Shown here piece after piece: positions 22,387-45,143 of a stretch of 64,000 nt of DNA. The translations under genes and the position numbers were made by a program. Each line of letters begins with the position of its first letter. Position 1 is the first letter of the stretch. This DNA is from Pusillimonas sp. T7-7 (GTDB lineage Bacteria > Pseudomonadota > Gammaproteobacteria > Burkholderiales > Burkholderiaceae_B). The notes below the pieces were generated by a model, which ran no database searches, was not told the DNA's origin, and saw only the letters and a list, made by a program, of their open reading frames with translations. Where the stretch lies: NCBI RefSeq assembly GCF_000209655.1, contig NC_015458.1:3410001-3474000 (forward strand), read 5' to 3'.

Positions 22387-22396
22387 CCATTTAGCC

Positions 22397-24000: not shown

Positions 24001-24034
24001 AGCGCACAAAGAGGTTTTGTGCGCAGGGAATCGT

Positions 24035-25027
24035 ATGACTACACCCGTTGACCAGTCTGCCGTCCGTAAACCTACCGTGCGTCCCGCCTACGACCCAACG
24101 CAAAAGCAGAAGTCGGGCGACAAGACCTCGCGCATCCCCATCAAAGTGGTTCAGGCCGAGCGCCTGAAAAAACCTGAATGGATACGTGTGAAGGCCGCCG
24201 CGCCGGGCTCACGGTTTTACGACATCAAGAAAATCCTGCGCGAGCATAATCTGCATACTGTGTGCGAAGAGGCCTCGTGCCCGAACATAGGCGAGTGCTT
24301 TGGCAAAGGCACGGCCACGTTCATGATCATGGGCGACAAGTGTACGCGTCGCTGCCCCTTCTGTGATGTGGGCCATGGCCGCCCCGATCCGCTCGACGTC
24401 AACGAACCTGTCAACCTGGCGCGTAGCATTGCCGCCATGAAGCTGTCGTATGTGGTCATTACCTCGGTTGATCGCGACGACTTGCGCGACGGGGGCGCCG
24501 GCCACTTCGTGGAATGCATACGCAAGGTGCGTGAACTTTCGCCCACCACCCGCATCGAAGTGCTGGTACCCGACTTCCGCGGCCGGCTCGACCGCGCCCT
24601 GGGCATTCTTAACGAAGGCCCGCCCGATGTCATGAACCACAATCTGGAAACCGTGCCTCGCCTGTACAAGCAGGCGCGTCCGGGGTCTGACTACCAGCAC
24701 TCGCTCAAGCTGTTGTCCGAATTCAAGATCTTGCATCCCGATGTGCCCACGAAATCGGGCTTGATGCTGGGCCTGGGCGAAACCGACGAGGAAATCCTGG
24801 AAGTGATGCGCGACATGCGTGCGCACAACGTCGATATGCTGACCATAGGCCAGTATTTGCAGCCGTCCGAGCATCACCTGCCGGTTTTGCGCTACGCGCA
24901 TCCCGACGTTTTCAAGATGCTCGAGCGCGAAGCCTACGCCATGGGCTTTACCCATGCCGCGGTGGGCGCCATGGTGCGCTCGTCCTATCATGCCGACGAA
25001 CAGGCGCACAGCGCCGGAGTGGCTTAA
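24035..25027 (+). CDS. lipA: Lipoyl synthase (radical SAM)
   Basis: A 330-residue radical SAM enzyme that inserts two sulfurs into octanoyl chains to make lipoyl groups. The auxiliary cluster cysteines are 77, 82 and 88 ([12 protein letters not shown]) and the radical SAM cluster cysteines are 103, 107 and 110 (CTRRCPFC). The C-terminal RSSYHAD serine, which ligates the auxiliary cluster, is present. I chose ATG 24035, behind an AGGGA sequence, over a GTG at 24017. The last 90 bases recur 8003 bases downstream (32941-33030), so the 3' end of this gene is one border of a likely inserted block. Confidence 0.96.
24938..25027 (+). repeat. 3' end of lipA, left copy of a 90-bp direct repeat
   Basis: These last 30 codons of lipA (including the stop) match 32941-33030 at 83 of 90 positions by my count. 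The final 57 bases, from ATGGTG to the TAA stop, are identical. All seven differences lie in the first 33 bases. Sequence after the stop is unrelated in the two places. Confidence 0.95.
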
Positions 25028-25059
25028 AGGTTTGCGCCCGGGGGCGTTTATAACGCTGC

Positions 25060-25980
25060 CTAAACCGGCGCTTCCAGCACTATCTCATTCATGCGCCGGA
25101 TCGTCACGCTCAGGAACTGCTCGATGACATCGGGCAGTATGCGTCCGCGCATGACCTGCACCTGCATGGTGCGTGCGTGCATTTCAGGGTTCTTTAGTGG
25201 AATCGCCACCAGGCGATTGACCTTGAGCTGCTGGAAAATCGAGCTGTAGCTGGCAAACAGAATCGCCTGGCTGTCGCGCACATAGGCATGTAGGGCTGCG
25301 GCGTAGTTGCTGTAGATCTTGGGCTCCACCCATGTTCCCACCATATTTGAGGCAAGCTGATACAGCTTGAAGGTGGACGTGTTTTCGTCGGTCAGGGCAA
25401 TGGGATAGAGGATCAGGTCGCGGATGTCCAGGCGCCTGTGACGCGCCAGGGGGTGATCCTGCGACATGATGGCCAGGGCGGGCGAGGCGCGCGCATACAA
25501 CACCTTTACCGATCCGGTGGACGGCGGGGGCGTAATGGTGAAGGTTAGTGCTACATCGGCTTCGCCGGTTTCCACCCTTTGCGTGGCTTGCTTGGCGCTG
25601 TCTACCCAGATGCGAAAGCGGATATCGGGATGCATGCGTTCAAAGTGCGCCAGCGTGCTGGGCAGGAAGTCGTTGGCCAGACCCTGTGTGCAGGCTATGC
25701 GCAAAACGCTGTGCCCGGTATTGCGCAGGGCGGCAATGGATGATCGCACAGCCTGGTCTTCAAGCGTGGCGCGGCGCACATGGCGCAGCAGCAGCTCGCC
25801 CGCTTCAGTCAGGAGCATGCCGCGCGCGCTGCGTAGAAACAAAGGACTGCCCAGGTCTTGTTCCAGGGTTGAAACCTGACGGCTTATCGCAGAAACCGCA
25901 ACATGTAAAGACTCGGACGCGGCGCTTAAGCTGCCTTTTTGGGCAACTTCATAAAAGTATCGGATAGCTAAACTTTCCAT
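25060..25980 (-). CDS. LysR-family transcriptional regulator
   Basis: A 306-residue LysR protein. The N-terminal winged helix-turn-helix runs from IRYFYEVAQKGSLSAASESL through AVSAISRQVSTLEQDLGSPL, followed by a linker helix and a two-lobed effector domain beginning near LRIACTQGLANDFLPS. It is divergent from the peptide-importer operon across a 226-base AT-rich gap, the standard layout for a LysR activator of its neighbour. Effector unknown; a peptide or amino acid derivative is the natural guess from context. It is the first gene inside the block bordered by the lipA repeat. Confidence 0.9.
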   Translation of the reverse strand: MESLAIRYFYEVAQKGSLSAASESLHVAVSAISRQVSTLEQDLGSPLFLRSARGMLLTEAGELLLRHVRRATLEDQAVRSSIAALRNTGHSVLRIACTQGLANDFLPSTLAHFERMHPDIRFRIWVDSAKQATQRVETGEADVALTFTITPPPSTGSVKVLYARASPALAIMSQDHPLARHRRLDIRDLILYPIALTDENTSTFKLYQLASNMVGTWVEPKIYSNYAAALHAYVRDSQAILFASYSSIFQQLKVNRLVAIPLKNPEMHARTMQVQVMRGRILPDVIEQFLSVTIRRMNEIVLEAPV

Positions 25981-26206
25981 TTTAACTATTTGTTTTAAAT
26001 GAGAATTTTGAGTATGTCATGAAACAGTAATATCGGGTAAACCCTAGTGTGTCTTTCTCTTTTTGATAAAGGATTTGCGATTTATTGAAATTGTATAGAA
26101 AGATAGCTGGGCATAGAATGTTTTTCTTTTGCGTAGACGCATCTGCTGAATGGCCAGGCGCGGACCACGCTTTTTCTTCCCAGAGACAAACCTAAGGAAC
26201 TCACGA

Positions 26207-27823
26207 ATGTCGACGGTATATCCCACGATTAAAAAAATCGCTGTCGTAGTGGCTTGTGCCTTTGCGGGCATCGCCCAGGCGCAGACTTTGAAAATAGGCC
26301 TGGCTTCCGAGCCTACGGCGGTTGACCCGCACTATCACCAGACTACGCCCAACGAGGCGCTGGTCTCGCATATTTTCCAGCCGCTGTTGGCCATGAGTCC
26401 CGACATGACGCTGATGCCCGCCCTGGCCAAGTCGTGGGAAGCCACCGAAGAGACTGTCTGGACCTTCAAGCTGGATGAGAACGCACGCTTTTCCAACGGC
26501 GAACCGTTCACAGCGCAAGACGTGATTTTCAGCTTCTGCCGCATTTTGAACAATGAAACCGGCATAGGCAGCGGTGCAGTCAATACGGTGCGCCGCATTG
26601 CCGCCATCGAAGCCCCGGACGAGCGCACCGTACTGCTCAAGACAACGGTGCCGCAACCCGTCTTGCCTAATGAACTGGCACGTATCCCCATGATCTGGAG
26701 CGGTATCGTCAAGCACGACAAGCTGACCTTCACCCCCAAAGAGGGCTGTGGTGTTACATCGCCCTGGCCGGTGGTGAACGATTTCAACAGCGGTAAAGCC
26801 GTGGTCGGCACCGGCCCCTACACGCTCAGGTCTTACGTCAAGGGCAGCGGCATTGTACTGGAGCGCAACGACAAGTATTGGGGCGAAGCGCCGGCTTGGA
26901 GCGAAGTGCACATGAGGGCCGTGCCCAGCGCTGGCCCGCGCCTGACAGGCTTGCTGGCAGGCGACTTCGACCTGATTGAAAACCCCGCCGCGCGTGATCT
27001 GAAGCGCATCAAGGAAAGTGGCTTCGAATACACCGTCAAGCCGTCGGTGCGTGTGATGTTCTTCCAGCTGGATGCCGGTCGCGAGCAAAGCCCCATGGTC
27101 AAATCGCCCAAGGGTGACAACCCCTTGCAGAACGCCAAGGTGCGCCAGGCCATGTCGTTGGCCATAGATCGCAAGACCATTGTTGCACGCATCATGGACG
27201 GCGTGGCCGAGCCCGCCAACCAGTACATTCCCCAGGGCATGTTTGGGGCCATCGAAGGCGCACCGGCGCTGGAGTACAACCCCAAGAAAGCCAAGGAACT
27301 GTTGGCCGAAGCCGGCTACCCCGACGGCTTCGAGCTGACACTGTCGGCCACCAATGACCGCTACATCAATGATGCACAGTTAACACAGGCTGTCGCCCAG
27401 TATCTGAGCCGCATAGGCATCAAGACCACTGTCGACACCATGACTCGTTCGGTTTACTTCCCCAAGCGCGCCAAACGTGAAATGAGCGCTGCTTTGGGCG
27501 GCTGGGGTTCGGAAACCGGTGAAGCGGGTAACTTCCTGCAGTACTGGACCACGACCTACAACAAGGAACTGGGCGTCGGCAGCAGCAACTATGGCCGCTA
27601 TTCCAACCCCGAACTGGACAAGGTTTACTTGCAGGCCATGCGCACGCTGGACGACGGCAAGCGCAGCGAACTGCTGCAGCAGGCCGTGAAGATGGCCTTG
27701 GCCGATATGCCCAATATTCCGCTGCATTTTGAAAGCGGTGTGTGGGCTTATCGCAAAGGCATCGCGTACGAAGGCCGCGCTGACCAGCGTACTTTGGCCA
27801 CCGGCGCGACGCTCGCCAAGTAA
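26207..27823 (+). CDS. ABC transporter peptide-binding protein (SBP family 5)
   Basis: A 538-residue exported solute-binding protein of the DppA/OppA family. A signal peptide (IKKIAVVVACAFAGIAQAQ) precedes a mature start LKIGLASEPTAVDPHYHQTT. Family landmarks are LAKSWEATEETVWTFKLDEN, VVGTGPYTLRSYV, and AMSLAIDRKTIVARIMDG. ATG 26207 has AAGGA ten bases upstream and is preferred over an upstream in-frame start at 26150 that would hide the signal peptide. It leads a five-gene importer operon with a peptidase at its end; ligand probably a peptide or N-acylated amino acid. Confidence 0.9.
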   Translation: MSTVYPTIKKIAVVVACAFAGIAQAQTLKIGLASEPTAVDPHYHQTTPNEALVSHIFQPLLAMSPDMTLMPALAKSWEATEETVWTFKLDENARFSNGEPFTAQDVIFSFCRILNNETGIGSGAVNTVRRIAAIEAPDERTVLLKTTVPQPVLPNELARIPMIWSGIVKHDKLTFTPKEGCGVTSPWPVVNDFNSGKAVVGTGPYTLRSYVKGSGIVLERNDKYWGEAPAWSEVHMRAVPSAGPRLTGLLAGDFDLIENPAARDLKRIKESGFEYTVKPSVRVMFFQLDAGREQSPMVKSPKGDNPLQNAKVRQAMSLAIDRKTIVARIMDGVAEPANQYIPQGMFGAIEGAPALEYNPKKAKELLAEAGYPDGFELTLSATNDRYINDAQLTQAVAQYLSRIGIKTTVDTMTRSVYFPKRAKREMSAALGGWGSETGEAGNFLQYWTTTYNKELGVGSSNYGRYSNPELDKVYLQAMRTLDDGKRSELLQQAVKMALADMPNIPLHFESGVWAYRKGIAYEGRADQRTLATGATLAK

Positions 27824-27854
27824 GGCGCTGCAAGGCTGACTAAGGAGTAAGGTT

Positions 27855-28832
27855 TTGGCTTTATTTATAGTACGCAGGCTGCTGCAAAGTCTGCTGGTCT
27901 TGTTGGCCGTATCGGTGGTGGTCTTCTGCGCCGTCTACGCGGTCGGAGACCCTATCGAGCTTCTTGTCAGCCCCGATGTGGCCCAAGCCGAACGTGATGC
28001 CCTGATTGCGCGGCTGGGCCTGGATTTGCCGCTATGGAAGCAATACGGCGTGTTCCTGTGGCGCGCGCTGCATGGCGACCTGGGCAATTCGTTTGTACAC
28101 GGCATACCGGCGGTGCAGCTGATACTGCAGCGCTTTCCAGCCACCCTGGAACTGGTTTTCGTGGCCATCACACTGACCTGTGTGCTGGGTATCTCGCTGG
28201 GTCTGGTGGCTGGCCTGTACCGTGATCGCTGGCTGGGTCGTGGCATCATGGCCGGCTCGATCTTCGGCTTTTCCGTGCCCAACTTCTGGCAGGGCATGGT
28301 CTTCATATTATTGTTTGCGGTCTGGCTAGGCTGGTTGCCAGCCTCGGGCCGTGGGCCGACCATAGACGTGCTGGGTGTGCCGCTCAGCGTCTTCAGCGCC
28401 GAAGGCTGGAGTCATATCGCCATGCCGGCCGTCAACCTGGCCATTGCCAATATTGCATTGGTGCTGCGCATGACGGCTTCGGGCGTCAGCGAGGCGCAAA
28501 GCCAGGACTACGTGCGATTCGCGCGCGCCAAAGGCATCAAGCCCGGCCGCATCGTGCGCCGACATATCCTGCGCAACATCCTGATTCCCGTCGTAACGGT
28601 CATCGGCATGGAGTTCGGCTCCCTGATCGCCTACTCCACCATCACGGAAACGGTGTTTTCCTGGCCGGGCATGGGCAAGCTGCTTATCGACAGCGTGTAT
28701 CAACTGGATCGCCCCGTAATCGTGGCTTACGTGATGCTGGTGACCTTGTTGTTTGTAATGATCAATCTGGTGGTGGACTTGCTGTACGCAGTGCTGGACC
28801 CACGTGTTCAATTGTTGGAGCCTACTGCCTGA
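27855..28832 (+). CDS. ABC transporter permease (DppB type)
   Basis: A 325-residue inner-membrane permease with six membrane segments. It has the DppB-type start FIVRRLLQSLLVLLAVSVVV, a periplasmic loop with DPIELLVSPDVAQAERDAL, and the cytoplasmic EAA loop DYVRFARAKGIKPGRIVRRH, which contacts the ATPases. Translation starts at a TTG, seven bases after AAGGAGTAAGG, a strong ribosome-binding site. The C-terminus DLLYAVLDPRVQL is typical for DppB. Confidence 0.92.
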   Translation: MALFIVRRLLQSLLVLLAVSVVVFCAVYAVGDPIELLVSPDVAQAERDALIARLGLDLPLWKQYGVFLWRALHGDLGNSFVHGIPAVQLILQRFPATLELVFVAITLTCVLGISLGLVAGLYRDRWLGRGIMAGSIFGFSVPNFWQGMVFILLFAVWLGWLPASGRGPTIDVLGVPLSVFSAEGWSHIAMPAVNLAIANIALVLRMTASGVSEAQSQDYVRFARAKGIKPGRIVRRHILRNILIPVVTVIGMEFGSLIAYSTITETVFSWPGMGKLLIDSVYQLDRPVIVAYVMLVTLLFVMINLVVDLLYAVLDPRVQLLEPTA

Positions 28833-28833
28833 T

Positions 28834-29781
28834 ATGCCTAGCATCATGACTAAATCTTCCAAGACGCAGGCGCCCGACACGGCTCCGGTGGCGCGTGTTG
28901 CGCCCCTGCAGCAAACGCCCGGGCGTGCGCGCATGCTGCGTAAGCTGCGCGGCAAGCCTTCCACCAAGCGTTCCTTGCTGGCCCTGGGCCTGCTGATTGT
29001 GCTGGTACTGCTGGCTCCACTGTTGGCCCCGCAAAACCCATACGATTTGCTGGCGCTGGACATCATGGACGGGCGCCTGGCTCCTGGCGCCACCAATTTC
29101 GATGGCTCCATGACGTACTGGCTGGGCACAGACTCGCAAGGCCGAGATATGTTCAGCGCCATTCTGTATGGCTTACGCATTAGCCTGTTCGTGGGCCTGG
29201 GCGCGGTGCTGATCTCGGTTGCCATAGGTGTGACCCTGGGCCTGCTGGCGGCCTATCGCGGCGGCTGGCTGGATACCGTGATCATGCGCGCCGTGGACTT
29301 CATCCTGGGTTTCCCCACCATGTTGGTTGCACTAGTGCTGCTGGCGGTGCTGGGCCGGGGTATAGACAAGGTGATCATCGCCCTGGTGGTGGTGCAGTGG
29401 GCGCATTATGCCCGCATCATGCGTGGCCGAGCCCTGCAGGAGCGGCGCAAGGAATACATAGAAGCTGCGCAGAACCTGGGCTTTCCCGCTTGGCGCGTGA
29501 TGCTGCTGCACCTCATGCCCAATTGTATCGGGCCGGTGATGGTGTTCGCCACCATACAGATAGCAACCGCCATTACGCTCGAGGCCACGCTCTCGTTCCT
29601 GGGTGTCGGTGTGCCGGTTACGCAGCCATCGCTGGGCTTGCTGATTGCCAGCGGCTTTGAATACCTGTTGTCGGGTGATTACTGGATCAGTATTTTTCCC
29701 GGTGTGGCGCTGTTGCTGCTGATTCTTTCCATCAATATCGCGGGCGATCGCCTGCGTGAAAGCCTGGATCCTCGACGCTAA
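28834..29781 (+). CDS. ABC transporter permease (DppC type)
   Basis: A 315-residue DppC-type permease whose ATG lies one base after the DppB stop (ATG 28846 is an alternative). After a polar N-terminal tail come six membrane segments. The DppC hallmark YWLGTDSQGRDMFSAILYG is present near residue 95, the coupling loop reads EYIEAAQNLGFPAWRVMLLH, and the protein ends GDRLRESLDPR. It would pair with the upstream DppB homologue to form the channel. Its stop overlaps the next start by one base. Confidence 0.92.
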   Translation: MPSIMTKSSKTQAPDTAPVARVAPLQQTPGRARMLRKLRGKPSTKRSLLALGLLIVLVLLAPLLAPQNPYDLLALDIMDGRLAPGATNFDGSMTYWLGTDSQGRDMFSAILYGLRISLFVGLGAVLISVAIGVTLGLLAAYRGGWLDTVIMRAVDFILGFPTMLVALVLLAVLGRGIDKVIIALVVVQWAHYARIMRGRALQERRKEYIEAAQNLGFPAWRVMLLHLMPNCIGPVMVFATIQIATAITLEATLSFLGVGVPVTQPSLGLLIASGFEYLLSGDYWISIFPGVALLLLILSINIAGDRLRESLDPRR

Positions 29782-30764
29782 TGACTACCTCTCCTGTTTT
29801 ATTGGATGTGCAGGGCCTGCAGACGGCCTTCCATACCGAGGCCGGCGCCTGGCTGGCTGTCGATGGTGTGGACCTGACCATCAAGTGCGGTGAAATCCTG
29901 GGCCTGGTCGGTGAATCGGGCTCGGGCAAATCGGTGACGGGTTTTTCGCTGCTGGGCCTGATCGATGCTCCGGGCGAAGTGGTGGCCGGTTCGGTGCGTT
30001 TCAAGGGCGACGAATTGCGCGGCCTGTCCGAAGAGCAGATGCGTGCCTTGCGCGGCGACCGCATTGCGATGATCTTTCAGGATCCCTTGATGACCCTGAA
30101 CCCGGTGCTCAGGGTGGGCGAACAGATGGCCGAAGCCATCTACACCCATTACCCACGCGTGTCCCGTGAAGAAATCCGCCTGCGTTGCATAGAAGCCTTG
30201 GGCCAGGTGGGTATACCATCGCCCGAAACCCGGTTGGACAACTATCCGCACGAGTTCTCGGGTGGCATGCGTCAGCGCGTGGCCATTGCCATCGCCATGC
30301 TGAACAAGCCCGAACTGATCATTGCCGACGAGCCGACCACGGCGCTGGATGTGACCATACAGGGGCAGATTTTGTTTGAAATGCAGAAGCTGTGTCGCGA
30401 GCAGAACACGGCCATGATCTGGATCACTCACGACCTGGGCGTGGTGGCCGAGCTGGCGGACCAGGTGGCGGTGATGTATGCCGGCCGCATCGTGGAATAC
30501 GGCAGCGTGGAACAGGTGCTTGGCAGTCCCTTGCATCCCTATACCAAGGGTTTGCTGGAATCCATGCCGGGCGCCACCACTCCTGGCGAGCGCCTGGCGC
30601 AGATAGAAGGCATGGCGCCCACGCTGATCAGTCGCGAAGCTGGCTGTCCGTTCCGCCCGCGCTGCACACGCAGCGATGTGGTGTGTGGGCAGCAGGCGCC
30701 CGAGGTCACCATACGTGGCGAGCGCCATTTCCGCTGCCATTTCCCGCTGGAGGTTCAGGCATGA
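29781..30764 (+). CDS. Oligopeptide ABC transporter ATP-binding protein (DppD type)
   Basis: A 327-residue ATPase. Walker A is GESGSGKS at residues 44-51, the Q loop lies in [16 protein letters not shown], the signature is [16 protein letters not shown] and Walker B is [12 protein letters not shown]. The C-terminal extension holds the Cys-containing [14 protein letters not shown] segment common to DppD/OppD, where it can bind an iron-sulfur cluster. It is coupled to DppC and DppF by stop/start overlaps. Confidence 0.93.
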
Positions 30765-31795
30765 GCGACGCACCCGTCATACAGCTGCAAGACCTGTACA
30801 AGCGTTTCAGCAAGAAGCCCGACCTGGCGCAACGCCTGATGGCATTGGCCGGCCGCCCCGTGAACAATCCCACCGTGCACGCCGTCAATGGCGTGGACCT
30901 GGCAATACGCAAGGGCGAGGTTCTGGGCCTGGTGGGTGAGTCGGGCTGCGGCAAGTCAACGCTAGGCCGCATCTTGGCGGGCTTGATCAAACCCAGCCAG
31001 GGCCAAGTGGTGTTCGACGGCCAGGACGCCGCCACGCTGCGGGGCAAGGAACAGCTGGACTACACGCTGGGTGTGCAGATGATCTTCCAGGATCCGCAGG
31101 CCTCGCTTAATCCCAAGCAGCGGCTGCATCAGATCCTGGCCGAGGCACTGCGCGTGCACAAGCTGGCGCCGCGCCGTGAAATGGCCGATCGTGTCGATCA
31201 GGCGCTGCTCGAGGTCGGGCTGGATCCCGAGTATCGCAATCGTCTGCCGCATGAAATTTCCGGTGGACAGCGCCAGCGCATAGGCATAGCCCGTGCCCTG
31301 ATGGTGCAGCCACGCTTTCTGGTGTGCGATGAACCTGTGGCGGCGCTGGACGTATCCATACAGGCGCAGGTCATCAACCTGTTCATGGATCTGCGCGACC
31401 GGCATGGCTTTACCTATTTGTTCATCAGCCACGATCTGAGCGTGGTGCGGCATATTTCTGATCGCGTGGCCATCATGTATTTGGGAAAAATCGTGGAGAT
31501 TGCGCCCACCAGCGAAGTGTATGGGCGTGCGGCGCATCCTTATACCCAGGCCTTACTGGTGGAAATGCCCGACGTATCGCGCCGCCAGCGCAAGTTCATT
31601 CCCATCAAGGGCGAAATTCCTTCGCCCCTGGCGCCGCCGCCGGGCTGTACTTTTCATCCCCGCTGCCCGCGCGCCACAGATATTTGCCGCCAACAGGCGC
31701 CCGCGCTGCGCACGATAGCGCCCGGCCATCAGGCCGCATGCCATCTGCTGCAGCATCCTGATCACGACAACACCCTATCCAACGGAAGCCTATGA
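30761..31795 (+). CDS. Oligopeptide ABC transporter ATP-binding protein (DppF type)
   Basis: A 344-residue ATPase starting at ATG 30761, which overlaps the DppD stop as ATGA. The same frame is open upstream to 30392, but that part is only an alternative reading of dppD. Walker A is GESGCGKST near residue 57, then [15 protein letters not shown], signature [15 protein letters not shown] and Walker [13 protein letters not shown]. The [15 protein letters not shown]-terminal segment is present. It completes a heterodimeric ATPase pair. Confidence 0.93.
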
Positions 31796-32925
31796 GCCAA
31801 CCTGACCACGACACAACGCCCTTGCTGGACATGATAGAGCGCTGGGTGCGCCTAGAGTCGCCCTCTTACAGCCAGGATGCCCTGCAGGCCATGGCGCAAT
31901 TGATCGTCGATGACGCGCAGCGCCTGCGCCTGAGCGCCGCCTTGCATGGCCTGGACAGCGCCGGTGCGCCGCTGGTGCATATTCATAACCGCAAGGCCGG
32001 CGATGACAGGCCGGGCATTCTGGTGCTGGGTCATTACGACACCGTGCACCCCGTGGGCATACTGGAAAAGAATCCGCTGCGTCGTGAAGGCGACAAGCTG
32101 TATGGGCCGGGCATTTACGATATGAAAGCGGGCATCTGCCTGGCGCTGATGGGCCTGGCGCAAGCGCAGCAGTCCGGTGGCACGGCTCTGCCGGTGGACC
32201 TGGTGATACTGCCCGATGAAGAAACCGGCAGCCACCGCTCGCGCAACGCCATCGAAGACTACGCGCGCAAATCGCGCTATGCCCTGGTGTGTGAGCCGGC
32301 GCGGGCTGATCAGGGGCGTTGTGTTACGGCGCGCAAGGGCACGGGCTTCATAACCGTGAAGGCCCAGGGTCGCCCCGCGCATGCGGGCATGCAGCATCAG
32401 AAAGGGCGCAACGCCATCGAAGAGATCGCGCATCAAGTGCTGGCCTTGCAGGCCATGACCGATTACGAGCGCGGCATTACGGTCAGCGTGGGCGTGGTCA
32501 AGGGCGGTACAACGCCCAATGTGGTGCCGGAATATTGCGAAATCCGGGCTGATTTCCGCTTGCCCGATCCGGCGGCGGCCGATGAGTTGCGCGCCAAGGT
32601 AGACGGCCTGCAAGCCCGCGTTCCCGACGTATTGCTGGACGTGGTGTTTGAGTTGAACCGGCCCCCAATGCCGCGCACCGAAGGCACGGCCGACTTGCTG
32701 CAGCGTTGCCAGGCCTACGCTGCAGCCGCCGGCCTGGCCCTGAACGAGGCACCCATGACCGGCGGGGCCAGCGATGCCAACTTCACCGCCGCCCTGGGTC
32801 TGCCCACACTGGATGGCTTGGGTGCCGACGGTGATGGCGCCCACACGCTCTACGAGCATATTCTGGTGTCCACGCTGGGCAGTCGCCAGCAATTCTGGAT
32901 GAACACTTTGCAGGCCTTGAGCTAG
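31792..32925 (+). CDS. M20-family metallopeptidase (carboxypeptidase G2-like)
   Basis: A 377-residue two-zinc peptidase. The first zinc ligands are in LVLGHYDTVHPVG, a shared Asp in GPGIYDMKAGI, and the catalytic Glu pair in PDEETGSHRSR. The dimerisation (lid) domain lies between about residues 190 and 300, with AGMQHQKGRNAIEE at its start, and the last ligand region GLGADGDGAHTLYEH is present. No signal peptide, so it would act in the cytoplasm on the imported compound, probably cleaving a C-terminal or N-acyl amino acid. Its start overlaps the DppF stop by four bases, which ties it to import. Confidence 0.88.
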   Translation: MSQPDHDTTPLLDMIERWVRLESPSYSQDALQAMAQLIVDDAQRLRLSAALHGLDSAGAPLVHIHNRKAGDDRPGILVLGHYDTVHPVGILEKNPLRREGDKLYGPGIYDMKAGICLALMGLAQAQQSGGTALPVDLVILPDEETGSHRSRNAIEDYARKSRYALVCEPARADQGRCVTARKGTGFITVKAQGRPAHAGMQHQKGRNAIEEIAHQVLALQAMTDYERGITVSVGVVKGGTTPNVVPEYCEIRADFRLPDPAAADELRAKVDGLQARVPDVLLDVVFELNRPPMPRTEGTADLLQRCQAYAAAAGLALNEAPMTGGASDANFTAALGLPTLDGLGADGDGAHTLYEHILVSTLGSRQQFWMNTLQALS

Positions 32926-32940
32926 TGACCTGTTTGGCGG

Positions 32941-33030
32941 GCCATGGGCTTCACCCGCACCGTCGTGGGCGCTATGGTGCGCTCGTCCTATCATGCCGAC
33001 GAACAGGCGCACAGCGCCGGAGTGGCTTAA
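32941..33030 (+). pseudogene. Orphan fragment of lipA (right copy of the 90-bp direct repeat)
   Basis: Thirty codons homologous to the lipA C-terminus, in frame through to TAA, but with no gene in front. It begins 15 bases after the M20 peptidase stop. The first 33 bases differ from lipA at seven sites and change the protein (FTRTVVG against FTHAAVG), while the last 57 bases are identical. This pattern fits a fragment of a related but distinct lipA allele, left when an 8-kb block was placed next to lipA. It has no start signal and should not be expressed as protein. Confidence 0.92.
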
Positions 33031-33079
33031 GTAGGCGGCGCCCCTGACGCAATGATCTTGACGCCTGAGTCCTTAAGGT

Positions 33080-34006
33080 TCAGGCGTCTGTTGCTTCGGG
33101 GCTGTCAAGCCTGCTGAAAGACTCATTCAACTGGTCGAAAAGCCAGTCTTTGAATGCCACCATTTTGGGTAGATGTGCTTTCGTCTGCAAATAAAGCAAG
33201 CGGTGATAAACCAGCATGGCGGGCTCCGACCCCAAGGGCAAGACCAGCTTGCCGCTTGCCACTTCCCGCTCTGTCTGCAGCCGGCTGTCCAGTATCACTC
33301 CCAATCCATCGACGGCCGCGCTGATTGCCATGAATGAACGATCAAACCGTGGGCCGTAGTGCATGTCTGAGTCGGCAACATGGTGCTGCTTGGCCCAGTC
33401 TCGCCAGGTAATCAGGTTGACTTCCGACTGAATGATTGTGTGATGCTGAAGATCTTTTGGACTTCGGATGGGTTTGCTTCCATTGGCCAGGCTTGGCGCG
33501 CACATGACCGCCAGGGGTTCTTTCGGAAAGGGCACGATGATAACGCCCGGTTCCGGGCTTACCGGGCCATACCGGACATCAAAATCTGCCGTTTCCGCCG
33601 TCAAGTCTATAGCGTTGGTCGAGGCATTGAGGCGTATGCCGATATCCGGATAAAGCATGCTGAAGTGCGACAGCTTGGGCATGAGCCATTGCGACGCCAG
33701 GGTCGGTGCACAGTGTACGGTGAGGATGTCCTGCTTCCCATAATTTCGCATATTCAAGGTGGCCGCGTCGATGATGCCCAGTCCGCGCGTAATCGCCTCG
33801 GCATAGTGACGCCCTGCGTCAGTCAACACAATTCCCCTATGAATGCGATGGAATAAGGCAATGCCCAATCTTTCTTCCAACAAGCGGATCTGATGGCTTA
33901 TGGCTGACGGGGTGAGGTTCAGCTCCGTAGCGGCTGCAGCAAAAGATCCCAGGCGCGCGGCGGCCTCGAATGCCTGGATGGACTTTAAAGAAAGAGAGGG
34001 TGGCAT
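33080..34006 (-). CDS. LysR-family transcriptional regulator (GcvA-like)
   Basis: A 308-residue LysR protein of the GcvA-like branch. The DNA-binding start SLKSIQAFEAAARLGSFAAA continues into LTPSAISHQIRLLEERLGIAL and FHRIHRGIVLTDAG, and the effector domain begins near LTVHCAPTLASQWLMP, the usual GcvA-subgroup signature. It diverges from the SDR gene across 139 bases, so it probably regulates the split-transketolase/TRAP cluster. Effector unknown. Confidence 0.9.
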   Translation of the reverse strand: MPPSLSLKSIQAFEAAARLGSFAAAATELNLTPSAISHQIRLLEERLGIALFHRIHRGIVLTDAGRHYAEAITRGLGIIDAATLNMRNYGKQDILTVHCAPTLASQWLMPKLSHFSMLYPDIGIRLNASTNAIDLTAETADFDVRYGPVSPEPGVIIVPFPKEPLAVMCAPSLANGSKPIRSPKDLQHHTIIQSEVNLITWRDWAKQHHVADSDMHYGPRFDRSFMAISAAVDGLGVILDSRLQTEREVASGKLVLPLGSEPAMLVYHRLLYLQTKAHLPKMVAFKDWLFDQLNESFSRLDSPEATDA

Positions 34007-34145
34007 GGTGAGTCTTTGTCTTTCGGGTGAATTGGTTTCATCTGTAGGGCTGTTTTATTCGTTTGCCCCGCAGGTAAAGGGTTACTAGAATCCATCAATA
34101 ATTAACGCGTCATCATGGCGCAACATAAAGCGACAGAGGCAAAAA

Positions 34146-34901
34146 ATGCAAGGACTATTAAGCAATAAAGTTGCAATTATCACCGGTGCGGCTTCGTTGA
34201 ACGGCATTGGCCGTCGTACAGCAAAACTCTTTGCCGAGCATGGCGCAACCGTGGTGATTGTCGATCTGGACGCAACAGCTGCAAGCGCCGCAGCGGAAAG
34301 TCTGGGATCGGGTCATCTGGGACTGGCCGGTAATGTAGCAAACCGGGATGATTGCCAGAAGGTGGTCGATACGGTTTTACAAAGCTATGGCAAGGTGGAT
34401 GTGTTAGTGAATAACGCCGGTATCACCCAGCCATCCAAAATCATGGAAATTACCGGCGAAGATTACCAGCGTATCACTGATGTGTCGTTGCGCGGCACAC
34501 TATACATGAGTCAAGCGGTTATTCCTTGCATGCGTCAAGCGGGCACAGGTTCGATTGTTTGCCTGTCTTCGGTATCGGCCCAGCGTGGCGGTGGAATCTT
34601 CGGCGGTCCTCATTACTCGGCGGCAAAAGCAGGCGTGCTGGGTTTGGCACGTGCCATGGCCCGGGAACTGGGTCCAGATGGCATACGCGTCAATTCCCTG
34701 ACGCCCGGGCTTATTCAAACCGACATCACTGCCGGCAAGCTGAGCCCAGAGATGAAGGCCGAAATTCTTAAAGGCATCCCTTTGAATCGCTTGGGCGCAG
34801 CGGTCGATGTGGCTAACTGCTGCCTGTTCCTGGCAAGTGATTTGTCAGGCTACCTAACGGGCGTCACGCTGGACGTTAACGGCGGCATGCTCATTCATTA
34901 A
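34146..34901 (+). CDS. Short-chain dehydrogenase/reductase
   Basis: A 251-residue classical SDR. The cofactor loop is TGAASLNGIGRR, with two extra residues compared with the common TGxxxGIG; Asp in VVIVDLDAT at the end of the second strand favours NAD over NADP. NNAG follows, then the catalytic Ser in VCLSSVSAQ and the YSAAK pair. The C-terminal GVTLDVNGGML is typical. It leads the plus-strand catabolic cluster, ten bases before the transketolase subunit, so I infer oxidation of an alcohol group of the imported substrate to a ketone usable by the transketolase. Confidence 0.9.
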   Translation: MQGLLSNKVAIITGAASLNGIGRRTAKLFAEHGATVVIVDLDATAASAAAESLGSGHLGLAGNVANRDDCQKVVDTVLQSYGKVDVLVNNAGITQPSKIMEITGEDYQRITDVSLRGTLYMSQAVIPCMRQAGTGSIVCLSSVSAQRGGGIFGGPHYSAAKAGVLGLARAMARELGPDGIRVNSLTPGLIQTDITAGKLSPEMKAEILKGIPLNRLGAAVDVANCCLFLASDLSGYLTGVTLDVNGGMLIH

Positions 34902-34911
34902 TGGACGAACT

Positions 34912-35760
34912 ATGACTACAGAACAACTGGCTGCGCTTGCGCACCGGGCATATCGAATCAGGCGCTACGCCCTGCAAATGGGCGAGGTTCAGGGGCAGGG
35001 CTATATTGGTCAGGCACTGGGCTACGCTGATGTACTGGCGGCCGCCTACTTATATGCCATGAACATCGACCCCGCCAACCCGGAATGGGAGGGGCGTGAC
35101 CGCTTCCTGCTTTCGCATGGCCATTACGCGATCGCTCTCTATGCCGCGCTGATAGAAGCCGGTGTCATTGATGTTGAGGAACTCGATAGCTATGGCTCGG
35201 ACGACAGCCGTTTGCCCATGTCAGGCATGGCCAGCTATACGCCCGGCATGGAGATGTCAGGCGGATCGCTGGGGCAGGGCCTGAGCATTGCCGTGGGCAT
35301 GGCCTTGGGGCTCAAACAAAAGGGCGGCAAGCAGTTCGTCTACAACTCGATGTCTGACGGCGAGCTTGATGAGGGAGCCACCTGGGAGGCTGCCATGTCG
35401 GCCAGTCACCACGGTCTGTCCAACCTGATCTGTCTTGTCGATATCAATAATCAGCAAGCTGACGATAACTCGAACAAGATATTGGGCTTTGAGCCGGTTG
35501 CCGATAAATGGGAGGCCTTTGGCTGGCATGTGCAGCGTGTCAATGGCAACGACCTGGCCGCTGTCGTAGCGGCTTTTGATGTCGCCAGAAATCTTGATGA
35601 AGCCAAACCCAGAGTCATTCTATTTGACACGCTTATGGGCAAAGGCGTTCCGTTTCTGGAGCAGCGAGACAAAACCCATTTCATCCGTGTGGAAGCCTCG
35701 GAGTGGCAGCAGGCCATTTCCATTCTGGATGCAGCCAACCTGGAAGAGTGTGAGTCATGA
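34912..35760 (+). CDS. Transketolase-like enzyme, N-terminal (TPP pyrophosphate-binding) subunit
   Basis: A 282-residue protein equal to the first half of transketolase. It has the LLSHGHYAIALYAAL segment, GSLGQGLSIAVGMALG and the TPP/metal motif from SDGELDEGATWEAAMSA to DINNQQ (about 148-181). The second half is encoded by the next gene, whose start overlaps this stop. Split transketolases occur in several specialised sugar pathways as well as in archaea. Together they would move a two-carbon ketol unit between sugars; the neighbours suggest a catabolic rather than pentose-phosphate role. Confidence 0.88.
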   Translation: MTTEQLAALAHRAYRIRRYALQMGEVQGQGYIGQALGYADVLAAAYLYAMNIDPANPEWEGRDRFLLSHGHYAIALYAALIEAGVIDVEELDSYGSDDSRLPMSGMASYTPGMEMSGGSLGQGLSIAVGMALGLKQKGGKQFVYNSMSDGELDEGATWEAAMSASHHGLSNLICLVDINNQQADDNSNKILGFEPVADKWEAFGWHVQRVNGNDLAAVVAAFDVARNLDEAKPRVILFDTLMGKGVPFLEQRDKTHFIRVEASEWQQAISILDAANLEECES

Positions 35761-36758
35761 ATACAGCAAGCCTTAAAAAACCGAAGTTGACGACTTCGGC
35801 CATGATCGCTTCGATTGCGGCCGAAGGACAGCAGGTCGAGTCGGCTCCGTTTGGCCATGCTCTGGCTGAGCTGGCCAAGCAGCGCCCCGAGATCGTCGGG
35901 ATGACCGCAGACCTGGCCAAATATACCGATTTACATATTTTTGCCCAGGCGCATCCCGATCGCTTCTTCCAAATGGGCATGGCCGAGCAGTTGCTCATGG
36001 GCGCGGCAGGCGGCATGGCAAAAGAAGGTTTTACGCCTTTCGTCACCACCTATGCGGTGTTTGGAACACGTCGCGCCTACGACTTCATTCACCAAATCAT
36101 TGCTGAAGAGCACCTTAACGTCAAAATCTGCTGCGCCTTGCCGGGCTTGACCACAGGTTATGGGCCCAGCCATCAGGCCACCGATGATATTGCCATGATG
36201 CGTGCTGTTCCTGGTTTGACCATTGTCGATCCGTGTGACGCGCTGGATATCAAACAGGCCGTGCCTGAAATTGCAGCGCACCCCGGGCCGGTCTATATGC
36301 GTCTTTTGCGCGGAAATGTGCCTGTTGTGCTTGACGAATACGACTACAAGTTCGAGTTGGGCAAGGCCAAGCGGCTGTGTGACGGCAATGATGTACTGAT
36401 TATTTCCAGTGGCCTGTTGACCATGCGCGCGCTAGAGGTGGCCAAGGCGCTCAAGAAAGAAAATGTGGGCGTGGCGGTGCTGCACGTACCTACCATCAAG
36501 CCCTTGGATCGCGCAACGATACTCAAAGAAGCCGGACGCTCTGGACGCCTGGTGGTTGTTGCCGAAAACCATTCCGTCATGGGTGGGTTGGGGGAAGCGG
36601 TCGCGGTATTGCTGCTGGAAAATGGCGTCACGCCAGCATTCCGTTTGGCAGGTTTGCCCGACGAGTTCCTGGATGCAGGGGCCTTGCCAACCTTGCACGA
36701 CCGCTATGGAATTTCAACCGAAGTATTAAGCCAACGCATCAAGCAGTGGCTGAAGTAG
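35757..36758 (+). CDS. Transketolase-like enzyme, C-terminal (pyrimidine-binding) subunit
   Basis: A 333-residue protein equal to the second half of transketolase. The catalytic Glu that activates TPP is expected at Glu77 in GMAEQLLMGAAGG. VTTYAVFGTRRAYDFIHQ and SHQATDDIAMMRAVPGLTIV are conserved landmarks. By eye, the usual ADLxxST phosphate-site segment reads ADLAKYTDL, and the usual HAGLxxGEDG(A/P)TH segment reads LPGLTTGYGPSH, so a phosphate-binding His and the Asp that reads the acceptor C2 hydroxyl appear to be missing. I infer unusual, perhaps unphosphorylated, substrates. Confidence 0.87.
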   Translation: MNTASLKKPKLTTSAMIASIAAEGQQVESAPFGHALAELAKQRPEIVGMTADLAKYTDLHIFAQAHPDRFFQMGMAEQLLMGAAGGMAKEGFTPFVTTYAVFGTRRAYDFIHQIIAEEHLNVKICCALPGLTTGYGPSHQATDDIAMMRAVPGLTIVDPCDALDIKQAVPEIAAHPGPVYMRLLRGNVPVVLDEYDYKFELGKAKRLCDGNDVLIISSGLLTMRALEVAKALKKENVGVAVLHVPTIKPLDRATILKEAGRSGRLVVVAENHSVMGGLGEAVAVLLLENGVTPAFRLAGLPDEFLDAGALPTLHDRYGISTEVLSQRIKQWLK

Positions 36759-36773
36759 CAAGTTGGATCAAAG

Positions 36774-36805
36774 GGGGAAGCCGCTTTATGCTTCCCCTCC
36801 TTTTT
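36774..36805 (+). terminator. Terminator or attenuator between transketolase and TRAP genes
   Basis: GGGGAAGC (36774-36781) pairs with GCTTCCCC (36790-36797) around an eight-base loop, followed by TCCTTTTT. It sits 32 bases before dctP. Since the genes on both sides look like one pathway, it may partly uncouple transporter from enzyme expression. Confidence 0.65.
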
Positions 36806-36836
36806 ATCAAAAATCAAGTGTCAGGAGACAAACTAA

Positions 36837-37805
36837 ATGAAAAAAACACTATTCGGTTTGCTGGTTGCGGCGTCGATGATGGCGCTTCCCGTTTCCGCTC
36901 AGCAAGTGTTGCGGCTTTCGCATAACGCATCCCCCGGAAATCCAAAGTCCGACGCGTCTTTGCTGTTTGCAAAGCTGGTCGAGGAAAAAACCGAAGGGCG
37001 TATCAAGGTCCACGTGGGTGGCGCGGCCCAATATGGTGAAGACGTTGAGTCGTTGACCAATATGCGTCTGGGTACGCTGGCGTTCAGTGCAAACTCCCAG
37101 GGGCCTACCTCGGGTGTTATTCCTGAGTTTTCAATATTGGGTCTGCCATTTCTGTTCAAAGATCTCGAGCATGCCTATAAAGTCATCGACGGGCCGGTTG
37201 GAGGTAAGCTGGGCGAACTGGCCGATGCAAAAGGTTTGGTGCTATTGGCCCTGTGGGATAACGGCATTCGACACGTCAGTAATAACGTGCGTCCTATAAA
37301 GACCCCCGAAGACCTTGCCGGGATCAAGCTGCGCACCCCACCCGACCCCATCACGATCGATATATTCACTGCGCTGGGCGCCAACCCCACACCGCTGGCC
37401 TTTTCCGAGCTATACATTGCGCTACAGCAGGGTGTTGTAGACGGGCAAGAGAACCCATTCATGAATATTCACTCAACTAAGCTGCATGAGGTGCAGAAAT
37501 ACATTTCATTGACTGCGCACAAGTATGAAACCACGCCATTCCTGGCCAGCAAAATAGTGTTCAACGGGTTTTCGAAGAAAGACCAGGCGCTGATCAAAGA
37601 AGCGGCAATCGAAGCGGGTAAATTCAACCGTGAGGAATCGCTGAAATCAGACGCAAAACTACGCCAGGTTTTCCTGGATGCGGGCCTTGAAATCAACGAA
37701 ATTGATTCAGCCCCCTTCATCGAGAAAACCAAGGGCGTTTACGACAAATGGCGTAAGGATTATCCCGAAATGGTCGACCTGGTTGTTAGCGAGGCGAGGA
37801 GCTAA
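36837..37805 (+). CDS. TRAP transporter periplasmic substrate-binding protein (DctP family)
   Basis: A 322-residue exported DctP protein. The signal peptide (KKTLFGLLVAASMMALPVSA) is followed by the mature start QQVLRLSHNASPGNPKS. The carboxylate-binding arginine is expected at Arg166 in GIKLRTPPDP, and LYIALQQGVVDGQENPF is the standard hinge motif. It would bind an acidic substrate for the DctQM pair behind it. In context the ligand is likely a sugar acid or other polar hydroxy acid, an inference only. GGAGACAAAC precedes the start. Confidence 0.9.
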   Translation: MKKTLFGLLVAASMMALPVSAQQVLRLSHNASPGNPKSDASLLFAKLVEEKTEGRIKVHVGGAAQYGEDVESLTNMRLGTLAFSANSQGPTSGVIPEFSILGLPFLFKDLEHAYKVIDGPVGGKLGELADAKGLVLLALWDNGIRHVSNNVRPIKTPEDLAGIKLRTPPDPITIDIFTALGANPTPLAFSELYIALQQGVVDGQENPFMNIHSTKLHEVQKYISLTAHKYETTPFLASKIVFNGFSKKDQALIKEAAIEAGKFNREESLKSDAKLRQVFLDAGLEINEIDSAPFIEKTKGVYDKWRKDYPEMVDLVVSEARS

Positions 37806-38341
37806 TGGGCGGCGACGGCTTGCCCTTAAGGGCGGCCACCGGACTGGATAAGTTCATTTATCTTGCCTCGGTGGTCATTGCGCTCGGCTCGCTTTTGACC
37901 ATGTTTGTTGCACTGTTGCTCGAGGTGGTTGTGCGCTACGCCACAAACAGCGGACTTGGCTGGCCCACCGAGCTGCCCAACCTGCTGTTCCCATGGCTGG
38001 TCATGAGCGGTGTCGTGCTGGCCGCGCAGCGCGGCCAGCATATTGCCGTCACTGCAATTCTGCATGTCTTGGGAAAGACCGGCACGCGTATCTTGCTTAT
38101 TGTTTTACAGCTGATATTGATTGCGGTGTTTGTCTACCTTGCCGAAGTGGGCCTCAGAGTGATCGAAGTGACCGGAACAGAAGTCTTTCCTGTGACACGC
38201 ATTACTGCCAAATGGGCTTATCTGTCCTTGATTGCGGGATTCATAGGCGTTGCGCTGACTGCCTTGACCACTATTGTGCAGCTGGTCTGCATACCCGAAC
38301 CCACTGCCGTGCGCGCACATAAGGCGGAGGAAGACATATGA
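37805..38341 (+). CDS. TRAP transporter small membrane subunit (DctQ family)
   Basis: A 178-residue protein with four membrane segments. The LLLEVVVRYATNSGLGWPTE segment and the FPWLVMSGVVLAAQRGQHIA segment are the DctQ hallmarks. Its ATG shares the last base of the dctP stop (TAATG), and its stop overlaps the dctM start, so all three subunits are translationally coupled. Confidence 0.88.
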   Translation: MGGDGLPLRAATGLDKFIYLASVVIALGSLLTMFVALLLEVVVRYATNSGLGWPTELPNLLFPWLVMSGVVLAAQRGQHIAVTAILHVLGKTGTRILLIVLQLILIAVFVYLAEVGLRVIEVTGTEVFPVTRITAKWAYLSLIAGFIGVALTALTTIVQLVCIPEPTAVRAHKAEEDI

Positions 38342-39597
38342 CTTTCCTGATGTTGGCCATATTCTTGGTGCTGCTGGTCTTGGCGATGCCTGTTGGTTTT
38401 GCATTGGTGATCAGCTCTGGCATCGCGGTGATCACGGCCGGTGGCATGCCTAGTGTGGTGGCGGTGGTCAAGCTGTTTCAGCCGACACAAAGCTTCCCGC
38501 TTTTGGCAATCCCCTTCTTCATACTATCCGGCAATCTGATGATGGGCGGTGTGCTGGGCAAGAAGCTGATCGAGTTTGCGACGGCATTGGTTGGCCGTTT
38601 CCATGGCGGCCTGGGCCAAGTAAGCGTGGTGGGTTGCACCATATTCGGCGGAGTGTCGGGCTCGGCGGTTGCCGAGGCGTCGGCATTGGGAAGCATGATC
38701 ATCCCCTGGCAAAAGCGGGTAGGTTATCCGCCGGCGTTTGGTGCAGCATCTATCGCCGCATCATCCGTTATTGCAGGGTTGATTCCGCCATCTATTCCGT
38801 TGATTTTATATGCCTCCGTCGCCAACGAATCCATCGCCGCATTATTTCTTGCAGGTGTTTTGCCGGGTTTGATGTTGTGCGTGGGTTTCATGCTTGTTTG
38901 CTATTTCAGCGGACGCTGGCGTAATTTCCCGAGGCTTGCGCAAGGGATGACCTTTAAAGGTATCTTGCGCACGACTGTAGCGGCTCTGCCTGCACTGATC
39001 ATGCCGATACTGATCCTTGTTTTGCTGAGAGGGGGGATCGCCACACCGACCGAGGTCAGTGTTGTAGCGGTTGCCTATGGTTTTATCGTCAGCGCACTGG
39101 TGTACCGGGACCTTAGCGTAAAGCGGGTATACGACGCACTGGTCGGCACGGCAGTGACGACGGGCGTAGTCATGCTGGTGATTGCGGCATCCAATTTGGT
39201 GGGCTATGTGCTGATCATGGAAGATGTCCCCAATATGGCGGCAAAGTGGACGATGGATGTTCTGAAGTCGCCCGAGCTGGTCATCTTGATGATGAACTTC
39301 ATTATGTTGTTTGTGGGCATGTTCCTGGACTTGCCGGCTGCAATTCTATTGCTGGGGCCGACCTTTGTGGCGATGGCTAACGAAATAGGTCTTGATACTG
39401 TCCAGCTCGGGGTTGTGATGGCAATTAATCTGAGCATTGGCTTGTTCACGCCACCTGTAGGAACGACTTTGTTTATTGCCGCGGCGATATCCAAAGAGCG
39501 GGTAGGAGCCATCGTTAAAGAACTATGGCCTTTCTACGCCGTTGCAATACTGGTCTTGGGCATGCTTTCCTATTTCCCGGTATTTACCTTGTACTGA
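38338..39597 (+). CDS. TRAP transporter large permease (DctM family)
   Basis: A 419-residue permease with about twelve membrane segments. It shows LLAIPFFILSGNLMMGG, the GCTIFGGVSGSAVAEASALG glycine-rich segment, AGLIPPSIPLILYASVANES and the terminal INLSIGLFTPPVGTTLFIAA motif. Sodium-driven uptake of the ligand from the DctP upstream is the expected role. The gene ends 82 bases before the hydroxyisobutyrate-type dehydrogenase with no terminator seen. Confidence 0.92.
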   Translation: MTFLMLAIFLVLLVLAMPVGFALVISSGIAVITAGGMPSVVAVVKLFQPTQSFPLLAIPFFILSGNLMMGGVLGKKLIEFATALVGRFHGGLGQVSVVGCTIFGGVSGSAVAEASALGSMIIPWQKRVGYPPAFGAASIAASSVIAGLIPPSIPLILYASVANESIAALFLAGVLPGLMLCVGFMLVCYFSGRWRNFPRLAQGMTFKGILRTTVAALPALIMPILILVLLRGGIATPTEVSVVAVAYGFIVSALVYRDLSVKRVYDALVGTAVTTGVVMLVIAASNLVGYVLIMEDVPNMAAKWTMDVLKSPELVILMMNFIMLFVGMFLDLPAAILLLGPTFVAMANEIGLDTVQLGVVMAINLSIGLFTPPVGTTLFIAAAISKERVGAIVKELWPFYAVAILVLGMLSYFPVFTLY

Positions 39598-39679
39598 TAG
39601 CGGCATCACCTGGTTTTACCCGTTGGCCGGCTGGCATTCGGCCGTGCCACGGGAGCCTTATTGTGTGGAGTATTTCGAA

Positions 39680-40564: not shown

Positions 40565-40575
40565 GAGAAAGAAAT

Positions 40576-41748: not shown

Positions 41749-41814
41749 CGCATTGCAAGATTTGCGTTGTGATGCCTGTTCTACGCAGTACGCGTACTTT
41801 TATCGGAGACAGTT

Positions 41815-43317: not shown

Positions 43318-43349
43318 ACGCCGTCTTTGCGCTGCCGCAAAGACGGCGT
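43318..43349 (+). terminator. Long perfect hairpin after the aldehyde dehydrogenase
   Basis: ACGCCGTCTTTGCG (43318-43331) and its exact complement (43336-43349) form a 14-bp stem with a CTGC loop. No T-run follows (the next bases are GGGGGAAG), so it is a rho-dependent boundary or 3'-end stabiliser rather than a classic terminator. It separates the catabolic cluster from nirV. Confidence 0.55.
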
Positions 43350-43414
43350 GGGGGAAGCAGCGTTCAATAGAGGTGTAGCGCCGGTGTTGCCGGCCAGCAG
43401 ACAAAGGTTTGAAC

Positions 43415-44966: not shown

Positions 44967-45045
44967 GTTGTTTTCCTGCGGCTGGTTATCGACGGGTGGC
45001 CTTTCGATTCTAGCATCGGGATCGCGTTCTCTGTAGTCTAAACCA

Positions 45046-45059: not shown

Positions 45060-45143
45060 AAGTTTATCACTATCGTATCTACGTATAAACCCGAACTTTT
45101 GCTGTCCGAGTTTGTGCTGCAACAAAGAAGCAATCCTCTCCAG

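What the first reader, a model, noticed from the sequence alone, without database searches (positions are those of the whole stretch)
24938..33030. An 8-kb peptide-import module is bracketed by two copies of the 3' end of lipA
The last 90 bases of lipA (24938-25027) recur at 32941-33030, exactly 8003 bases away, right behind the M20 peptidase stop. By my count 83 of 90 bases agree, the last 57 are identical including the stop, and all seven changes lie upstream and alter the protein. Between them lie a LysR regulator, a five-gene Dpp-type importer and an M20 peptidase, all coupled. This looks like a DNA block joined to the 3' end of a housekeeping gene, with the right copy a displaced or imported lipA allele. 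No integrase is in the window, so homologous recombination of donor DNA carrying its own lipA end is as likely as site-specific integration.
Basis: partly seen in the sequence, partly recalled or inferred. Interest (0 to 1): 0.85.

Follow-up and report, generated by a model that had tools for sequence, protein, structure and literature searches.

The report
Recombination scar beside lipA
A second copy of the end of the lipoate gene lipA most likely marks the seam where blocks of transport genes were exchanged between related bacteria by ordinary DNA recombination rather than by a mobile element.

Summary
The repeat is real: 24938-25027 recurs at 32941-33030, 83 of 90 bases, last 57 identical. 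It reads best as a recombination scar, not an integrase footprint. Block A (LysR, SBP, dppBCDF, M20; 25060-32925) and block B (LysR, SDR, transketolase halves, TRAP, dehydrogenases; 33080-43293) are alternative cargo between lipA and a conserved flank X (from about 43324): two congeners have lipA-A-X, one has lipA-B-X, and only the window has both, with the lipA end at the A/B seam. The apparent empty site in G001 is a deletion that keeps the LysR tail. A pairs with G002 while the flanks do not, so A was exchanged between species. The right copy starts on a 12-base near-match that G002 carries 15 bases after its M20 stop. G291, of another genus, shows the same layout with toxin-antitoxin-like cargo and congeners with an empty site. 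Which block arrived last is unresolved. The right copy has drifted except for its last 57 bases, which look recently homogenised with lipA. Known kind of mechanism; new, well-resolved case.

The parts
24017..25027 (+). lipA, intact, 336 aa; its last 90 bases (24938-25027) are the left copy of the repeat
   Evidence: 98% identical to G001 and G003 lipA
25060..32925 (.). Block A: LysR 25060-25980 (-), SBP 26150-27823, dppB 27855-28832, dppC 28804-29781, dppD 29781-30764, dppF about 30761-31795, M20 peptidase 31792-32925 (+)
   Evidence: tree
25110..25114 (.). TCAGG, left side of the deletion junction seen in G001 (partner TCAGG at 33080-33084)
32941..32952 (+). GCCATGGGCTTC: first 12 bases of the right copy, near-identical (11 of 12) to G002's DNA 15 bases after its M20 stop; probable seam
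32941..33030 (+). Right copy of the lipA 3' end, non-functional orphan
32974..33030 (+). 57 bases identical to the end of lipA, probably homogenised recently
33060..33088 (+). Hairpin with T-rich tail between block A and the block B LysR; cut in G001 by the deletion
33080..43293 (.). Block B: LysR (-), SDR, two transketolase halves, TRAP DctP-DctQ-DctM, 3-hydroxyisobutyrate-type dehydrogenase, Fe-ADH, aldehyde dehydrogenase
43324..53000 (.). Flank X (right end approximate), conserved behind lipA or behind the cargo in relatives

Best explanation
The right copy is the scar of an additive recombination event at a gene-exchange site between lipA and flank X. Blocks A and B are alternative cargo of this site. 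SHOWN: the arrangements in the four genomes of the genus; the tree conflict that makes the window's A a close relative of G002's A inside a G001-like left flank; the deletion origin of G001's junction; the near-match at the left edge of the right copy; the same layout in a second genus. INFERRED: incoming DNA paired by long homology at one end and was joined at the other through the short match GCCATGGnCTT between the right flank of block A and the 3' end of a lipA copy, which stranded that lipA end between A and B. PREFERRED ORDER (my probability 0.4): A came from a G002-like lineage and stranded the recipient's own lipA end, perhaps through a transient tandem arrangement with loss of an older A. 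ALTERNATIVE ORDER (0.25): B came in behind A together with the lipA end of its donor. Afterwards the orphan drifted, and its last 57 bases were recently made identical to lipA by gene conversion.
For: G002, G003: lipA-A-X; G001: lipA-B-X; window: lipA-A-lipA'-B-X; G021: lipA then X, with an A block at about 2.44 Mb while lipA is at 0.35 Mb. Tree of A: window+G002 100/100, G002+G003 rejected (p-AU 7e-6 with one outgroup; 1.9e-14 with two). Left flank: window+G001 and G002+G003 both starred, window+G002 rejected (6e-43); right flank, without a G001 row: G002+G003 starred, window+G002 rejected (1e-12). G001's 81-base spacer matches the window's DNA behind lipA into the LysR with score 82 against a maximum of 36 in 500 shuffles. 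The seam: 11 of 12 bases at the same offset as in G002. Parallel case G291, with lipA directly before the CoA transferase in 4 of 6 congener stretches. A ComEC-type competence domain is present.
Against: No genome with lipA directly before B, the expected recipient or donor, was found. The left lipA end and spacer look G001-like (24868-25117: 9 sites for G001, 1 for G002, 4 for G003), so A did not come by simple replacement running across the lipA end. lipA alone gives an unresolved tree. G001's LysR tail shows that an A block stood before B there, so the preferred order needs an extra loss of the older A. ComEC alone does not show competence; the domain rings in 10 of 14 control genomes. Second lipA ends near lipA are rare (2 of 268 family genomes) and the lipB control gave 0 of 268, so nothing shows that lipA is a special target.
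Confidence: 0.65

Rival explanations
1. Site-specific integration: A (or A with more) entered as an element whose attachment site copies the lipA 3' end, so that lipA stays intact and the old end is displaced to the far side; the integrase was lost since.
For: A repeat that ends at the lipA stop with an identical 57-base block and an intact lipA is the classical layout.
Against: No PF00589 integrase in the window and no mobility gene among the A and B genes scanned by Pfam; no clean empty site in the genus; cargo on both sides of the orphan; A of the window exchanged from a G002-like lineage where A has no second lipA end.
Confidence: 0.06
2. Local duplication only: unequal recombination at the GCCATGG match duplicated the unit 'lipA end plus A' in tandem; the second A was later lost up to the orphan's stop and B lies behind it. 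No imported DNA was involved in making the orphan.
For: The match that would drive it exists in G002's arrangement; G420 shows a tandem duplication of the lipA end without cargo.
Against: The second A would have to end exactly at the orphan's stop; the window's DNA at 33031-33066 has no clear match to DNA behind lipA in the window, G001, G002 or G003 (248, 143, 70 and 19 of 500 shuffles reached the score); A's origin by exchange still needs a separate event.
Confidence: 0.13
3. The orphan is older and travelled with A: G002's GCCATGGACTTC is itself the remnant of a lipA end that G002 lost by deletion, and G003 lost it too.
For: Window right copy and G002 share TTC where lipA of all four congeners has TTT; 11-12 bases is long for a chance seam.
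Against: Needs losses in G002 and G003; in G002 part of the 12-mer also forms the arm of the hairpin that opens X (my reading), which gives it another reason to exist.
Confidence: 0.12
4. Assembly error.
For: None found.
Against: The copies differ at seven positions and have different flanks; the genome is in 2 contigs with 100 completeness and 0.15 contamination; G291 shows the same layout. Reads were not available.
Confidence: 0.02

Closest known systems
[quoted passage not shown] minimal mobile elements of Neisseria (named in PMC3388099, passages seen; their definition is recalled)
   Same: Conserved genes on both sides, different cargo in relatives, no mobility genes found in the cargo scanned, tree conflict for cargo A
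   Different: Two cargo blocks stand side by side with a gene-end scar at their seam; compared between species of a genus, not within one species
Homology-facilitated illegitimate recombination (PMC3240628, abstract and passages seen)
   Same: Homology at one end, an illegitimate join at the other; in that E. coli study 56 of 60 clones gave a duplication product of the target gene, sized 109 to 950 bp in 14 sequenced, explained there by a single crossing-over of a circular molecule
   Different: Inferred here from anatomy; donor unknown. The paper finds true such events very rare in E. coli, and the word microhomology does not occur in it; a short match at the illegitimate end is recalled from other work
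Merodiploids made by natural transformation in Streptococcus pneumoniae (PMC3784515, abstract seen)
   Same: Incoming DNA with alternative pairing leaves tandem duplications
   Different: Duplications of about 100 to 900 kb, driven by repeats; here only a 90-base remnant is left
Genomic islands at 3' ends of housekeeping genes, such as SGI1 at trmE (start of abstract in a search listing, PMC8409611)
   Same: Gene-end repeat with the gene kept intact
   Different: No integrase found, no clean empty site in the genus, decayed orphan, cargo on both sides of it

Membership tests
Integrative element at a gene 3' end | Direct repeat made of the gene's 3' end | tested here: met
Integrative element at a gene 3' end | Integrase inside or beside the element | tested here: not met
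   14 PF00589 matches in the genome, none in the window; serine recombinases not searched
Integrative element at a gene 3' end | Clean empty site in close relatives | tested here: not met
   G001's junction keeps the LysR tail; G002 and G003 hold A; only three congeners are available
Recombination-driven cargo hotspot | Same flanking genes, different cargo in relatives | tested here: met
Recombination-driven cargo hotspot | No mobility genes in the cargo | tested here: met
   Pfam for 3 of 7 genes of A and 10 of 10 of B; no PF00589 in the window
Recombination-driven cargo hotspot | Tree of the cargo conflicts with the tree of the flanks | tested here: met
   for A; not tested for B, present at this site in only two genomes
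Recombination-driven cargo hotspot | DNA uptake by natural transformation | tested here: inconclusive
   ComEC domain present, one marker only
Homology-facilitated illegitimate recombination | Short match at the illegitimate end (feature recalled) | tested here: met
   11 of 12 bases; in G291 GTTACGTGCATC stands in lipA and at the junction, but the uncut cargo is not at hand there
Homology-facilitated illegitimate recombination | Donor and recipient known, event observed | not testable with these tools
   needs a transformation experiment or more strains

The most novel reading that the evidence does not exclude
Orphan housekeeping-gene ends at the seams between cargo blocks are a general, readable trace of additive recombination at integrase-free hotspots; and the 57 identical bases leave block A excisable, since recombination within them would release an 8003-base circle and restore a lipA that encodes the same protein.
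Probability: 0.2. Interest if true: 0.55.

Novelty: new member of a known kind. Interest (0 to 1): 0.37.

Why it matters
It shows at base resolution how two blocks of transport and catabolic genes came to lie side by side behind a housekeeping gene without a recognisable mobile element, and offers a signature (orphan gene end, short match at the seam, tree conflict) that separates recombination-driven stacking from integrase islands. It also warns that an apparent empty site can be a later deletion.

Tried and rejected
Site-specific integration: not favoured, for lack of an integrase and of a clean empty site. G001 as ancestral empty site: rejected by the LysR tail. Import of A by simple replacement across the lipA end: not favoured, because the left lipA end and spacer look G001-like. 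Origin of 33031-33066 from DNA behind a lipA gene: no convincing match. Plasmid records: 22 of 72,556 matched, none over most of the query; the 20 of 22 listed show short matches, mostly named as ABC-transporter ATP-binding genes. Rfam at gathering cut-offs over 23800-44500: no match. tRNA genes: none in the window. lipA as a preferred target: not shown, 2 of 268 against 0 of 268 for lipB; the two searches used E limits of 0.01 and 0.001. Papers: one search (lipA, integration site, genomic island, attB) found 82 papers, 10 listed, none of those ten with the word lipA; searches (8 of 38 listed; 10 of 10) listed no title on a duplicated lipA end. That is no proof of absence from print. Other searches for background: 36, 50, 51.

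Order-level screen: 399 genomes. Besides the window's, I picked out by eye 25 genomes with two matches and searched them again: only G420 has the second match beside the first; G338 and G406 have a match near a contig end and stay open; the others lie on other contigs or far away. In the searches for the block B LysR only 5 to 8 candidates per genome were scored, so a weak relative could be missed.
Full report
OBSERVATION. The direct repeat is as stated: 24938-25027 and 32941-33030, spacing 8003, 83 of 90 bases, last 57 identical. The seven differences sit at positions 12, 17, 18, 19, 23, 24 and 33; under an even spread all seven in the first 33 has P = 5.7e-4, and, leaving out the first 12 bases, six of six within positions 13-33 has P = 2.1e-4. 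They touch five codons; three change the residue (H to R, A to T, A to V, at residues kept in all nine relatives) and two are silent. A whole-genome search finds one full lipA and this one fragment in the window's genome.

THE GENUS. Three congeners are held, each with one lipA end. G002 and G003 read lipA, block A, then X: the M20 end is joined to DNA that matches the window from about 43319-43324 on. G001 reads lipA, block B, X. The window alone has lipA, A, lipA end, B, X. In six other genera (G021, G023, G030, G005, G016, G027) neither block was found behind lipA in the stretches fetched: X-like DNA follows lipA after 568 bases in G021, about 2.3 kb in G023 and 1.0 kb in G030; G005, G016 and G027 have other DNA or other parts of the region there. 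Block A exists in G021 at another locus and in G023, whose contig has the length of the UBA6240 record, there too without a lipA match in the stretch. A relative of the block B LysR occurs in 6 of 268 family genomes at 1e-80 and in 2 of 399 order genomes at 1e-90, the window's included; in the stretches of G115 and G262 B lies without a lipA match.

G001 IS A DELETION, NOT AN EMPTY SITE. The 81 bases between lipA and the block B LysR in G001 align with the window's DNA behind the left lipA and into the A-block LysR (score 82; maximum of 500 shuffles 36). On the minus strand they read RRIEEIALVAPVQ against RRMNEIVLEAPV-stop. The next bases in G001, TCAGG, stand at 25110-25114 in the window's LysR of block A and at 33080-33084 at the end of the LysR of block B, inside the hairpin 33060-33088. 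G001's line therefore had A before B and lost it. G001 has no M20 match at 1e-60 in its whole genome.

A WAS EXCHANGED BETWEEN SPECIES. Over A the window and G002 are sisters (100/100) and G002+G003 is rejected (p-AU 7e-6; 1.9e-14 with G021's A added). All five segments of A give the same pair (94/95, 100/99, 100/100, 96/98 and, for the last 0.6 kb, only 76/77). On the left flank the window pairs with G001 and G002 with G003; the right-flank tree has no G001 row and gives G002+G003. Sites with a shared derived state for window+G002, window+G003 and G002+G003: 188, 86, 79 in A; 55, 38, 97 on the left (21184-24016); 107, 80, 215 on the right. Third-codon identity between window and G002 is 75-83% in the seven genes of A against 64-67% in the four genes upstream of lipA (75.5% in lipA itself). 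The window-G002 path in A (0.12) is shorter than the window-G001 path on the left flank (0.17), so the exchange is probably younger than the split from G001 if rates are alike (inference). Against a simple import across lipA: from 24868 to 25117 nine informative sites unite the window with G001, one with G002, four with G003. lipA as a whole is mixed: its tree is unresolved.

THE SEAM. Fifteen bases after the M20 stop the window reads GCCATGGGCTTC, the first 12 bases of the right copy; G002 reads GCCATGGACTTC at the same distance. On the + strand of the two congener stretches there are 3 matches of 11 of 12 or better in 39,802 positions; since lipA itself reads GCCATGGGCTTT there, two of the three should be the lipA genes. 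G003 lacks the sequence. The right copy has TTC where lipA of the window and the three congeners has TTT, as expected if these 12 bases came from the A side. In G002 part of the 12-mer doubles as an arm of the hairpin that opens X (my reading).

AGE AND HOMOGENISATION. In the last 57 bases both copies have TAT and GAA where G001, G002 and G003 all have TAC and GAG; some outgroups also have TAT or GAA, so these are probable, not certain, new states of this line. The first part has drifted while the last 57 bases are identical, so the copies were probably made identical there recently, by conversion in either direction (inference).

A PARALLEL CASE. In 268 family genomes searched with the last 59 residues of lipA, six have more than one match (read by eye). 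A second match beside lipA is present in the window and in G291 of another genus; G163, G019 and G174 have weak second matches elsewhere, and the three matches of G194 overlap within one lipA region. G291 reads lipA, an HTH gene and a partner ORF, a lipA end (120 bases against 156 of lipA, with a 36-base gap), ParD-like and ParE-like genes, and a CoA transferase. The partner ORF gave no Pfam match; calling it a toxin gene cut by the junction is my recall and inference. In 4 of 6 congener stretches examined (G262, G286, G263, G266) lipA is followed directly by the CoA transferase; in G289 and G028 no CoA transferase was found in the stretch held, and G028 has homologs of the HTH gene and partner about 0.5 kb from lipA on the other strand. 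G263 aligns with G291 on both sides of the extra DNA. The layout lipA, cargo, lipA end, cargo, conserved gene thus occurs in two genera. In the order, G420 has a tandem duplication of the lipA end (82% over 185 aligned positions) without cargo. A control with the lipB C-terminus gave no genome with a second match among 268: too few events to say that lipA is special.

MECHANISM. Shown: alternative cargo, exchange of A, a seam at a short match, the deletion in G001, the parallel layout. Inferred: incoming DNA was joined by homology at one end and through a short match at the other, stranding one lipA end; uptake by transformation is possible (ComEC) but not shown. Whether A came in over lipA-B or B came in behind A is undecided; I put 0.4 and 0.25 on these. 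Homology at one end with an illegitimate join at the other is described in competent bacteria (PMC3240628), and hotspots without mobility genes whose flanking core genes recombine often in PMC5635113.

VERDICT. The finding is real and more than a chance repeat, but its mechanism is of a known kind. The orphan could encode at most a 28-residue peptide in the lipA frame from the ATG at 32944; no function is expected of it.

Noticed in passing
window 46859-52304: A second Dpp-type importer lies in flank X; its counterparts in relatives are about 40-64% identical in protein to block A's genes, so two paralogous importers stand about 15 kb apart.
   Followed up: no
window 43324-43400: X opens with a TTTGCGCTGCAACAAAGA-like hairpin whose arms seem to change together between congeners, followed by GGTTCAATAGAGGTGTAGCGCCGG-like DNA; no Rfam match at gathering cut-off.
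   Followed up: partly
window 8196-15856: About 7.7 kb present here but missing in G001, where the two sides lie about 30 bases apart.
   Followed up: no
window 57586-57587: 110 bases present in both G001 and G002 are missing here at the same place.
   Followed up: no
L099 2333-3641: G291: two toxin-antitoxin-like pairs stacked behind lipA with a lipA end between them.
   Followed up: yes
L102 (G420:C145:1-3000): Tandem duplication of the lipA 3' end with hairpin-rich spacer and no cargo.
   Followed up: partly
L034 about 5340-5440: G021: short tandem repeats (GTAAGAATGCAGTCATTTTC-like) shortly behind lipA.
   Followed up: no
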